Positions 22,216 through 26,013 of a stretch of DNA of 64,000 bases are shown here, piece by piece. The stretch comes from Frigoriglobus tundricola (GTDB lineage: Bacteria; Planctomycetota; Planctomycetia; Gemmatales; Gemmataceae). Location of the stretch: assembly GCF_013128195.2 (NCBI RefSeq), contig NZ_CP053452.2:8928001-8992000 (forward strand), written 5' to 3'. The translations under genes were made by a program, and so were the position numbers. Every line of letters begins with the position of its first letter. Positions within the stretch are counted from its first letter, which is position 1. The notes beneath the pieces are model-generated. The model made no database searches and was not told the origin of the DNA. It saw only the letters and a program-made list of their open reading frames with translations.

Positions 22216-23538
22216 TTACACCAATCCGGTCAGCGGCCCGGCGGCGCAGTGGTTAGGGTTGCCGAACGTCTTGACCTCGTGGCCGAACCCGTGGGCCAGC
22301 GCCATGAGGAGGCGGTTGTGCGCCACCTTCGGGAACTTGAGCGACCGGCCCATCTTGAAGTCGAGACCGCCGCCGACCAGCACGAAGGGGATGTTGTCCA
22401 TCGTGTGCGAGTTGCCCTTGCCCAACTCGTTCGTCCAGACGAGCAGCGTGTTGTCGAGCAGGTTCCCGCTGCCACCCGGTTCCGGCGTCTCGGCGAGCCG
22501 CTTCGCGAGGTACGCGACCTGCTCGCAGTACCACTTGTTGATCTTGACGAGCTTCTCCTGGGCCTTCTCGTTCGTGTCCGGTTCGTGCGAGAGGCCGTGG
22601 TGCCCTTCGTCGATCCCCAGCCACTTCATGCGCGGCTCGCCCACCGAGTTCGTGATCTGATACGTTGCGACCCGGGCGAAGTCGGCACTGAAGCTGTTCA
22701 CCAGCAGATCGATCTGCGCCTTGCTGACCTGGGGCATGTTGTCGTTGACCTTCTTCATGCCCGGTTCGAGCTTCGGAACCGCGTGGCCCGCCGTTGCCGC
22801 GGCCCTCGATTCTTTGAGTTCCTTCTCCATGTCCCGGACGAACGCCGCGTGCTCCTCCAGGAGCTTCTTGTCCGCGGCGCCGACGTTGTCGCCAACCTTC
22901 TTCAGGTCGTCCTTGACGTCGTCGAGGACGCTGGCGAGCGCCTCGTTGTCCTTCGCGCGGCCGTAGAGCTTGTTGAACAGTTGATACGGGTCGTCGATTG
23001 GCGTGAGCGGTTTGTTCGCCCCGGCGTAGCTCCACCGCGTCCAGGTGTCGGCCCGCTCGGGCACCATCACGCCGAGTTCGAGTGAACCGAAGCGCGTCTT
23101 GGTTGCCGCGCTCTTCTGGAGGTGGTTCCGGATCTCCTGGTCGATGGAGATGCCTTTCGCCCATCCGGCCGGCGTATCGGAGCCGCCCTGAATGTTCCCC
23201 GGGAACAGTTCGATGCCCGTGAGGAGGCACCCGATGCCGCGCATGTGACCGTCGCCGTCGCCACGGATCTTGTCACACACGCCGTGGAGCGTGAGCGTCT
23301 GCTTCTTGAACAGTTCCAGCGGCGTGAGGATCTCTTTCAGCTTGAAAGCGGCTCCTTCTTCGTCCGGCCAGAACGACTTCGGCACGATCCCGTTCGGGCT
23401 GAAGATGAAGACGATCCGCTGCTTGCGCTGAGCCTGGTTAGCAAAACTGAGGCCCGGCAGGTTGAGCAGAAACGGAACGGCCGCGGCGCTGATGCCGAGG
23501 TCGCGCACGAATTCGCGCCGGGTGCGGGTCACGGGCAT
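22216..23538 (-). CDS. DUF1552 exported protein
   Basis: A 440-residue protein of the planctomycete DUF1552 family. The ATG at 23538 puts a TAT-like signal at the N-terminus ([20 protein letters not shown]). The family signature [18 protein letters not shown] follows, then CLLTGIEL, a [11 protein letters not shown] stretch, and near the end [18 protein letters not shown] and VLVGGG, which give it a sulfatase/DUF1501-like look. It is encoded just downstream of the DUF1592 gene on the same strand, a pairing seen repeatedly in planctomycetes, where both are exported and presumed to work together. The substrate is unknown. A 96-base palindromic repeat separates the two genes. Confidence 0.9.
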
Positions 23539-23588
23539 GGGATATGGCTCCGGGCGGTGATTTCGGCGGTGGGTCATTTAGTCCGGTC

Positions 23589-23691: not shown

Positions 23692-26013
23692 CTATTTGGG
23701 CGGTTTCGTGTCCTTCGGCGGCAGCGCTCCCGTCACAGCGACTTCCACCAACAATTTTCGCACGCTGTAACCGTTTTCGGCAAACGTTTTCCGCAGTTCA
23801 TCGGGTTTCCTAAGTCCGTAAGCTCGCATGGGTTGCTTGAGATAGTGATGGAACGCCTGCTGAGCGAATGCATAGTGCGTCTCGTCACTGTTCGCAAGGA
23901 ATTCCGCGAGCTGCTTCGCCCCGGTAAATTTGGCCACCGCGCCCGTGCGTTGCTCGTAACTGCCCGATACGTCAATGACCTTCGCTCTCTCCTTCTCACG
24001 GTATCGGCCGACCGCGTCGTAGTTTTCCAGCGCGAAGCCGAGCGGGTTCATGATCGAGTGGCACCCGGAACAGGCCATCGGCTTGGTCTGGAGTGACACG
24101 CGTTCGCGAGTCGTAAGGTTCGGGTGCTGTTCCGCCGCCAGCGGCGTGAACGCCTCCATCGGCGGTTTGATGGCGATGCCCAGTAACCCGCGGCCGACGA
24201 ACACCCCGCGGTGGATCGGCGAGCTCTCCGCCGAATAAGCCAGCGTCGAGAGCGTGTACGGGTGCGTGAGCACCCCGCTCCTTCGTGCGGCTTCGAACTT
24301 CACTTTCTGGAACGGCGCGTCGGGCGGAAGGTCCACGCCGTAGAACTTTGCGAGCCGACCGTTGAGGAAAGTCTAGTCCGCTAAAAGCAGTTGCCGAAAA
24401 TCGGACGACGCACTCCAGACGACCTCGTCGAGCAACAGTTCCAGGGAGGTGCGGAGGTCGTTCGCGAGTTCGGCATCGAAGCCGGGGAACCGTTTCGCGT
24501 CTTTCGACAGTTCCTTGGCCTGGTCGAGCTTCAACCAGACGATCAGGAACTCGCGGAGTTTGGCCCGTGCACGGGGGTCGCTCAACATCCGTTCAGCCTG
24601 TTTCGCGACCTCGTCGCGGGTGCCGAGTTTGCCAGCGGCTGCGGCGGCGAGCAGTTCCTTATCGGGAGGAGCGTCCCAGAGGGCGAAACTGAGCCGGGTA
24701 GCGGTCGCATAAGGCTCGGGCGCCGTGCCCGCATCGGGATAGAGGAAACGCGGCGACTTCAGTACGAGGAGCACAAAGCGCTTCACCGCGAGGTCGATGT
24801 CCGGCGTGCCCTCGAACGGTCGGTCGATGAACAGCGCCGTTTCGGCTGCTGTCAGCGGGCGGCGGAACGCGCGCTCCGCGAACGTTCGACAGAACGCTTT
24901 CACCTTTGGGAGCCGGTCCGCTGCTGTTGCATTGGCGGCGGCGCCGGAAAGCTCGGGCAGGCGTGCGACGACATAGGCCGCCGTTTCGAGCGCGCCCTCG
25001 GTGGCTGCGGCGTCCCACTCCTTCGAGACGGTCGTTCCGCGCTCCCAGCCGAGCGAGCGGTCGTCGGGCGGGAACGGCGCTTCGACCACGTACACTTCTG
25101 GGAACTTCTGCGGCGTGAGGTTGCGGGCGGGAATCACTTCGATCGCCCGGTTCGGTCGCTTCCAGTTGAGGGAAACGAAGGCCGGCTTCACCGGGGGCTT
25201 CGGGGTCTTGTTCGAGTCGTCCACCCCCTGCTTCGCCTTCGAGAACTCCAACCGGATCGGGTACGCCCGGCCCGCGAGTAAGAACAGACTCGCTTTGAAC
25301 TCGGTGTTGTCACCGGATTTGACCCAGGCGTCGATCACCGGCTTCCGGTTTTCGTTCACCCAGAGCCGGAGGGCGTGATCGGTGCGGACGACGAACTCGT
25401 ACACGCCCGTGTCCGGCGCCCACACGGACCCTTCCCACCGGATGCAGAACGTGTTCGGGTCGAACGTTTCGGGCTTGTCCGGGTCCGGCCCGGCCTTTCC
25501 GAAATCGAACTTCACCTCGGCATCGGTCCGATCGATCACGCGCTTGTTACCCTGAAAGCCGCGTGAGTTGAAGTACTCGCCGCGCAGCCCCTGCTTCTCT
25601 TCCACTTTCGGCGCACCGCGGAAACTGCCGATCACGTCCGCCACGCTGTTCCGGTACTGCTTCACCGTGAGGCGCGACAGTTCCACGCGGGGCGGGTTCC
25701 GTTTGGCCTGGGCGTCCGGCGAATAGAAGCTGTCGTAGATGAAGGCGGCCACGCGCTTGCCGCCCTCCGCGTCGAGGGCTTCCGGCTCGCCTTCGGGCAT
25801 GGTGCGGGCGATCACGCCGGTCAGTTGGGGCAGCGATTTATCGCCGGTGAGGGGCAGCGGGTAGTTCTTCGCGCCTTCGCCCTTCGCGCCGTGGCACCGC
25901 GCGCACATCTGCTTGTAAATCTGCTCGCCCGTGCGCTCCTCGGCCGGCGCGGCGCCGGCCAGCACCGCGAGCGCGACGAGGGCGGACCCGAATATGTGCG
26001 GGGTGAACGTCAT
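23692..26013 (-). pseudogene. DUF1592-family protein gene with in-frame amber codon
   Basis: The intact frame would encode 773 residues, starting at ATG 26013 with a signal peptide (FGSALVALAVLAGAAPAEE). The order is: cytochrome c-like CARCHGAKGEG (~residue 35), DUF1587 region (RLTVKQYRNSVADVIG), PA14-like segment (GEYFNSRGFQG ... YEFVVRTDHALRLWV), DUF1595/DUF1592 regions (FAERAFRRPLT, TRLSFALWDAPPDKELL, FLIVWLKLDQAKELS), then DUF1588/DUF1585 (ACSGCHSIMNPLGFALENYD, RKLLVEVAVTGALP). Codon 547 (bases 24375-24373) is TAG, between SDFRQLLLAD and TFLNGRLAKFYG; relatives usually have Tyr there (DYTFLN). The reading frame does not shift and both sides look intact. Either the gene is newly broken, the stop is read through, or the base is a sequencing error. 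The final stop is also TAG. Confidence 0.85.

What the first reader, a model, noticed from the sequence alone, without database searches (positions are those of the whole stretch)
24360..24390. Single in-frame amber codon inside an otherwise intact DUF1592 gene
Codon 547 is TAG exactly where relatives usually have Tyr (D-Y-T-F-L-N), one base from TAC or TAT. The frame does not shift: 26013-24376 and 24372-23692 are in the same frame, and both halves keep conserved domains. The downstream half holds DUF1588/DUF1585, so termination would remove a large part. The partner DUF1552 gene downstream looks intact. Options are a very recent pseudogene, stop readthrough, or a sequencing error. The gene's own final stop is also TAG, so general reassignment is unlikely.
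Basis: partly seen in the sequence, partly recalled or inferred. Interest (0 to 1): 0.65.

Follow-up and report, generated by a model that had tools for sequence, protein, structure and literature searches.

The report
Fresh nonsense codon in cytochrome gene
One copy of a widely conserved planctomycete cytochrome-type gene carries a single stop codon in its middle that none of its examined relatives share, most likely a very recent gene-breaking mutation or a base error in the assembly, and nothing points to a special decoding mechanism.

Summary
In detail: the minus-strand gene 26013-23692 has one in-frame TAG (24373-24375, codon 547), no frameshift, and domains on both sides. No second close copy was found in the genome. 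Among orthologs the TAG is private: 1 of 69 match rows from 68 matching genomes (95 family genomes searched), and the only internal stop among the listed rows of a 397-genome class search (list cut). The part after the TAG is as constrained as the part before (dN/dS 0.166 and 0.152 against the nearest relative; 0 of 46 family-invariant residues changed), so any loss is very recent. I found no UAG-reading tRNA, no pyrrolysine synthetase above cut-off, an RF1-like gene with its motifs, ordinary TAG use at ORF ends, and no unusually stable RNA fold. The genome has other interrupted genes (TAA, TGA, a frameshift). Best reading: a young nonsense mutation removing DUF1588/DUF1585 and the second CXXCH site. 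A consensus base error is the main rival and needs reads to exclude. Functional readthrough is unlikely but not excluded. Low interest.

The parts
24376..26013 (-). 5' part of the gene, codons 1-546: signal-like N terminus (by eye), CXXCH at residues 37-41, PA14, DUF1595 (PSD5), first 113 matched residues of DUF1592 (PSD4)
24373..24375 (-). in-frame TAG, codon 547; Glu in 15 and Asp in 3 of 18 same-genus orthologs
23692..24372 (-). 3' part in the same frame with the gene's own terminal TAG: end of DUF1592, DUF1588 (PSCyt3) with a second CXXCH motif (residues 648-652), DUF1585 (PSD2)
22216..23577 (-). neighbouring intact DUF1552 (HXXSHH, PF07586) partner gene, next to the ortholog in the seven relatives shown

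Best explanation
A very recent nonsense mutation in a gene, present once in this genome as far as found, for a planctomycete-type c-type cytochrome (PSCyt3/PSD4, the DUF1592-DUF1588 family). Translation should end at codon 547, inside the DUF1592 domain. That would leave a 546-residue product without the end of DUF1592, without the DUF1588 domain and its CXXCH haem motif, and without DUF1585, so very probably without function. The downstream frame persists because there has been little time for decay. Shown: the stop, its privacy to this genome in the searches made, and constraint on both sides. Inferred: that the base is real, that ribosomes stop there, and that function is lost.
For: One TAG, no other lesion in the gene. 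TAG differs by one base from GAG, and Glu codons (GAA/GAG) occupy this site in 15 of 18 same-genus orthologs. Private to this genome: the only internal stop among 69 match rows from 68 of 95 family genomes, and among the rows listed from 275 matching genomes of 397 in the class (list cut, at most 7 candidates scored per genome). No constraint difference across the stop: dN/dS 0.152 before and 0.166 after against G007; ranges over seven relatives 0.129-0.203 and 0.131-0.192. None of 66 (before) and 46 (after) residues invariant in the other 29 orthologs is changed. The break sits at the first residue of a beta strand inside one confident predicted fold (mean pLDDT 92.8, pTM 0.90), so the halves should not work apart (inference). 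The genome has other interrupted genes of ordinary kinds: 4 of 133 PF07596 matches with TAA or TGA inside and a frameshifted ABC ATPase. RF1-like gene with PAT and GGQ motifs (the meaning of the motifs is recalled). A weak sign of relaxed constraint on this branch: more changes specific to this genome than to G007 with each of four outgroups (69:50, 69:49, 63:52, 72:39; p 0.10, 0.08, 0.35, 0.002).
Against: No clear decay is seen, so the data cannot tell a young pseudogene from a wrong consensus base or from a tolerated stop. The gene is kept in all 18 other same-genus genomes held, so losing it might be costly. No reads or second strain were available. The excess of changes on this branch is significant with only one of four outgroups and does not differ between the two halves (Fisher p 0.68-1.0).
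Confidence: 0.58

Rival explanations
1. Consensus base error in the assembly: the gene is intact in the organism.
For: Single substitution, no other lesion, constraint intact on both sides. A highly conserved gene without a second close copy found, with an intact partner gene. A mid-domain frameshift elsewhere in the same assembly shows a second interruption of unknown cause.
Against: Internal stops are rare in this assembly: 0 of 84 PF00005 matches and none in the listed rows of 155 PF00069 matches, so there is no general flood of base errors. No read data to test it.
Confidence: 0.3
2. Functional readthrough: the TAG is real but ribosomes insert an amino acid often enough (near-cognate tRNA, e.g. 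Gln-CUG or Tyr-GUA) for the full-length protein to be made, perhaps at a lowered level.
For: Intact constraint after the stop. The genome holds many extra tRNA genes in arrays, including additional Gln-CTG and Tyr-GTA genes. In-frame stops with dN/dS below 1 have been described as widespread in bacteria (PMC7918605, parts 1-2 of 6 read).
Against: TAG not shared by any ortholog seen. No CTA anticodon in register among the 85 tRNA matches. PylS family only far below cut-off. No unusually stable RNA fold: z -0.57 downstream. RF1-like gene present. The same paper finds such stops mostly short-lived.
Confidence: 0.07
3. Split gene: the two halves are made as separate proteins, the second by re-initiation (e.g. 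at GTG 24336), and work together.
For: An open 214-codon frame with a GTG start begins 12 codons after the TAG.
Against: The break lies inside the DUF1592 domain and at the first residue of a strand in a confident predicted fold. No convincing ribosome-binding sequence is evident by eye before the GTG. No split in the match rows seen of relatives. The second half has no evident export signal, while PMC5615132 (passage seen) predicts periplasmic or cytoplasmic location for such proteins.
Confidence: 0.03
4. TAG is reassigned to a sense codon in this organism.
For: None beyond the stop itself.
Against: TAG ends 50 of 225 long ORFs in a 464-kb sample and this gene itself. RF1-like gene. No CTA-anticodon tRNA found. 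Internal stops in the other family with any (PF07596) are TAA or TGA.
Confidence: 0.01

Closest known systems
Nonsense-interrupted bacterial genes (young pseudogenes / in-frame stop polymorphisms; Belinky et al. 2021, PMC7918605)
   Same: One in-frame stop, constraint retained after it, confined to one lineage as far as seen.
   Different: Here no second genome shares the stop, so the paper's orthologous-stop criterion is not met.
Planctomycete-specific cytochrome c proteins (PSCyt3 with PSD domains), which PMC5615132 (passages) reports next to families of unknown genes
   Same: DUF1595, DUF1592 (PSD4), DUF1588 (PSCyt3), DUF1585 (PSD2), PA14, an N-terminal cytochrome c domain, and a neighbouring DUF1552 gene.
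   Different: This copy is interrupted by a stop in DUF1592.
Programmed amber recoding (pyrrolysine, suppressor-tRNA codes; recalled)
   Same: An in-frame TAG followed by constrained coding sequence.
   Different: No shared TAG, no dedicated tRNA or synthetase found, ordinary TAG use at ORF ends elsewhere.

Membership tests
PSCyt3/PSD4 (DUF1592-DUF1588) cytochrome family | Pfam domains PF07637, PF07631, PF07627, PF07624 in this order | tested here: met
   Read-through protein: PF07631 141.1 and PF07627 105.4 bits, both over cut-off. PF07637 33.9 (cut-off 34.2) and PF07624 24.9 (cut-off 25.8) are just under in the whole protein and just over it in the separate halves (34.5 and 26.2).
PSCyt3/PSD4 (DUF1592-DUF1588) cytochrome family | CXXCH haem motif in the DUF1588 region | tested here: met
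   Cys and His of the motif invariant in all 47 aligned sequences (C319, C322, H323 of the aligned stretch); it lies after the TAG.
PSCyt3/PSD4 (DUF1592-DUF1588) cytochrome family | Neighbouring DUF1552 gene | tested here: met
   PF07586 at 286 bits in 22219-23577; adjacent in the seven relatives shown.
Young pseudogene by nonsense mutation | A stop inside a frame that is open in relatives | tested here: met
Young pseudogene by nonsense mutation | Relaxed constraint on this lineage | tested here: inconclusive
   dN/dS alike before and after the stop. Excess of changes over G007 significant with 1 of 4 outgroups. Contrast with the DUF1552 partner p 0.0003-0.003, but the partner has a long G007 branch.
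Young pseudogene by nonsense mutation | No functional product is made | not testable with these tools
   Needs proteomics or an activity test.
Young pseudogene by nonsense mutation | The base is real (supported by reads) | not testable with these tools
   No reads or second strain held.
Conserved programmed stop readthrough | Stop codon kept at the same site in relatives | tested here: not met
   0 of 68 other match rows in the family search; none among the other listed rows of the class search (list cut).
Conserved programmed stop readthrough | Stimulatory RNA structure near the stop | tested here: inconclusive
   No unusual stability: z-scores -0.57, -0.21 and 0.71 for three 120-nt stretches; a specific motif could still be missed.
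Pyrrolysine or suppressor-tRNA UAG decoding | tRNA with CTA anticodon | tested here: not met
   None among 85 Rfam tRNA matches. 23 of 173 first-look candidates were not scored; five matches that ARAGORN did not call and one it left unresolved were read by eye.
Pyrrolysine or suppressor-tRNA UAG decoding | PylS synthetase | tested here: not met
   TIGR02367: best 28.7 bits against a cut-off of 178.15; matches at E 0.001 occur in 13 of 14 control genomes, over the cut-off in 1.
UAG reassignment | TAG no longer used as a terminator | tested here: not met
   50 of 225 long ORFs end in TAG (ORFs not checked as genes).

The most novel reading that the evidence does not exclude
The stop is real and tolerated because this organism reads some UAG codons as amino acid with near-cognate tRNAs, helped by extra tRNA genes in its arrays, so the gene stays functional at a reduced, possibly condition-dependent level.
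Probability: 0.05. Interest if true: 0.5.

Novelty: new member of a known kind. Interest (0 to 1): 0.15.

Why it matters
Mainly an annotation point: the two ORFs should be recorded as one interrupted gene. If the base is real, it marks the recent loss of a gene that the 18 other same-genus genomes held all keep, and gives a natural case for asking what this uncharacterised cytochrome/DUF1552 pair does. If readthrough were shown, it would be an example of a tolerated amber codon in a planctomycete.

Tried and rejected
A second TAG reported by the tool for G014 looked like a shared stop; it is that gene's own terminal stop and was dropped. One search aligned loci without turning the minus-strand ones round and is void; one search replaces it.

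A codon-usage scan for interrupted genes in 20 stretches of the genome plus the window gave 27 candidates and missed the known stop, probably because other frames score well in this high-GC genome; not used.

Foldseek found no PDB match with E at or below 0.001. VIA-align's best row was Z 5.1 (rmsd 3.4, 79 residues aligned, model residues 5-96 only), which is no evidence of a relation. A profile search of PDB sequences gave 0 matches at E 0.1. So no function was gained from structure.

Relative rates: changes specific to this genome against G007-specific ones are 69:50, 69:49, 63:52 and 72:39 with outgroups G004, G016, G008 and G002 (p 0.10, 0.08, 0.35, 0.002), with no difference between the halves (Fisher p 0.68-1.0). 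The contrast with the DUF1552 partner (15-17 to 34-39) has Fisher p 0.0003-0.003. That contrast could mean relaxed constraint on this gene, but the eight-taxon DUF1552 tree has a long G007 branch (0.162 against 0.054 for this genome), so I did not build on it. In five-taxon trees this genome's share of total length is 0.346 before and 0.435 after the stop, 0.313 in DUF1552 and 0.242 in the isomerase; a GFO_IDH gene (six taxa) gave 0.204. One search stopped with a script error after these rows; the fourth control gene was not computed. One search ended with a file error after its numbers were printed.

I guessed from recall that the genome might be Frigoriglobus; the paper search (listing only) did not settle it, so no name is claimed.

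On checking, I found one more array tRNA match that ARAGORN had not called (C1:2861016-2861086).

Full report
What is there. On the minus strand, one frame runs from ATG at 26013 to a terminal TAG at 23694-23692 and is interrupted once, by TAG at 24373-24375, codon 547. With the TAG read as a residue, the 773-residue protein has an N-terminal cytochrome c domain with CXXCH at residues 37-41, PA14 (140-295), DUF1595 (371-425), DUF1592 (434-560), DUF1588 (578-675) and DUF1585 (695-759) (DUF1595 and DUF1585 just under cut-off there and just over it in the separate halves). The stop lies inside DUF1592. It would remove the last 14 matched residues of that domain, the DUF1588 haem motif (residues 648-652; its Cys and His are invariant in 47 aligned sequences) and the rest. 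The neighbouring DUF1552 gene is intact, and the pair is adjacent in the seven relatives shown (that script printed at most seven hits per ORF, so the eighth region, G014, was not judged there). The genome, 9,857,393 bases in two contigs, showed no second close copy: the best of its other matches listed is 34% identical, DNA search found only short partial matches elsewhere, and 7 of 8 DUF1592 matches have no internal stop.

What relatives have. In 29 orthologs (the closest match of each genome) the codon is Glu in 19, Asp in 4, Ser in 2, and Gln, His, Ala and Arg in one each; the 18 same-genus orthologs have Glu (15) or Asp (3). In 46 more distant homologs it is Tyr in 33, Phe in 6, His in 3, Ser in 2, Glu in 1 and Arg in 1. 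In the family-level search 68 of 95 genomes had a match at E 1e-60 (69 rows), and only the window's genome had an internal stop. In a class-level search 275 of 397 genomes matched at E 1e-55, and no other listed row had a stop; that list is cut and at most 7 candidates per genome were scored. The stop is private in everything that I could see.

Constraint. Identity to relatives is the same on both sides (77.6% for residues 300-546 and 77.1% after the stop, to G007). dN/dS against G007 is 0.152 before and 0.166 after; over seven relatives the ranges are 0.129-0.203 and 0.131-0.192. Columns invariant in the other 18 same-genus sequences are changed in this genome at 5 of 185 before and 3 of 89 after; in the other 18, each left out in turn, the changes run 0-8 and 0-3. 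Of columns invariant in all the other 29 orthologs it changes 0 of 66 and 0 of 46. GC at third positions falls after the stop (0.825 to 0.758), but it falls in 17 of the other 18 same-genus genomes too, so this is not decay.

Rate on this branch. Changes specific to this genome outnumber G007-specific ones with each of four outgroups: 69:50, 69:49, 63:52 and 72:39 (p 0.10, 0.08, 0.35, 0.002), alike in both halves. The DUF1552 partner runs the other way (16:37 with G004), and the contrast has p 0.0003-0.003, but DUF1552 has an unusually long G007 branch. In a five-taxon tree this genome's share of length is 0.346 before and 0.435 after the stop. This may be a first sign of relaxed constraint; it is too uneven to build on. 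If the stop ends translation, it did so only recently.

Can the cell read UAG? 85 tRNA matches were found in the genome (150 of 173 first-look candidates were scored). No anticodon called by ARAGORN is CTA. Five matches that ARAGORN did not call were read by eye from Rfam alignments: anticodons in register GGC, GCU, CAC, CCG and CGC. In one of these the loop UUGCUAG (C1:8756263, read as GCU) contains the letters CUA one base out of register. One further match (L107:391) has an unresolved loop, CTCGTC by eye, without CTA. The PylS model matches only far below its cut-off. An RF1-like gene (415.2 bits against a cut-off of 423.25) carries PAT and GGQ (the meaning of these motifs is recalled). Of 225 long ORFs in a 464-kb sample, 136 end in TGA, 50 in TAG and 39 in TAA; these ORFs were not checked as genes. 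RNA folding around the stop is unremarkable.

Is interruption unusual here? Internal stops occur in 0 of 84 PF00005 matches, in none of the listed rows of 155 PF00069 matches (list cut), and in 4 of 133 PF07596 matches, with TAA or TGA. One ABC ATPase is frameshifted in mid-domain. The genome therefore carries some ordinary interrupted genes, or errors, of several kinds; nothing is special to TAG.

Effect on the protein. The predicted structure of residues 330-773 (47 sequences, mean pLDDT 92.8, pTM 0.90) is confident throughout most of its length, and residue 547 is the first residue of a beta strand in it. A product ending at 546 would lack about half of this part. No solved structure was found to resemble it by sequence profile or by Foldseek at E 0.001. 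PMC5615132 (passages seen) says that nothing is known about the function of these cytochromes and suggests a role in carbohydrate metabolism.

Comparison with print. In-frame stops with retained purifying selection are described as widespread in bacteria and mostly short-lived (PMC7918605, parts 1 and 2 of 6 read). This case fits that picture as a single, unshared instance. Two full-text searches for DUF1592, DUF1552, DUF1588 and PSCyt terms (4 papers, all listed; 12 listed of 243) listed no paper about this gene in this organism.

Verdict. The most likely cause is a recent nonsense mutation (0.58), next a consensus base error (0.30), then functional readthrough (0.07), two separate proteins (0.03) and reassignment (0.01). 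Reads over three bases would settle most of it.

Noticed in passing
L106 519-2789 (G000:C1:2860518-2862788) and L107 10366-12686 (C1:3076765-3079085), outside the window: Two tRNA arrays: 20 ARAGORN tRNA genes within 2.3 kb (plus one more Rfam match, CGC), and 11 in a row plus one 1.2 kb further. The ARAGORN anticodons of the two arrays do not overlap and together cover 17 of 20 amino acids (no Cys, His, Val). tRNA array units are known elsewhere as a putative antidefence system (PMC12803027, start of abstract in a listing).
   Followed up: partly
L108 366-600 (G000:C1:9201665-9201899), outside the window: Three tandem tRNA-like genes, the third (72 bases) with anticodon TCA, which would read the UGA stop codon; 38-50 bits by Rfam.
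   Followed up: partly
L212 164-235 (G000:C1:8756263-8756334), outside the window: Degenerate tRNA-like gene (40 bits) not called by ARAGORN, loop UUGCUAG, with a mismatched pair closing the anticodon stem.
   Followed up: no
L252 (G000:C1:5568567-5569003, minus strand), outside the window: ABC transporter ATPase domain broken by a frameshift between two overlapping matches in different frames; pseudogene or indel error.
   Followed up: partly
G000:C1:9783676-9784548, 2749002-2749739, 7713774-7714472, 8497653-8498105: Four of 133 PF07596 (DUF1559) matches carry internal TAA or TGA stops: ordinary interrupted members of an expanded family, or errors.
   Followed up: no
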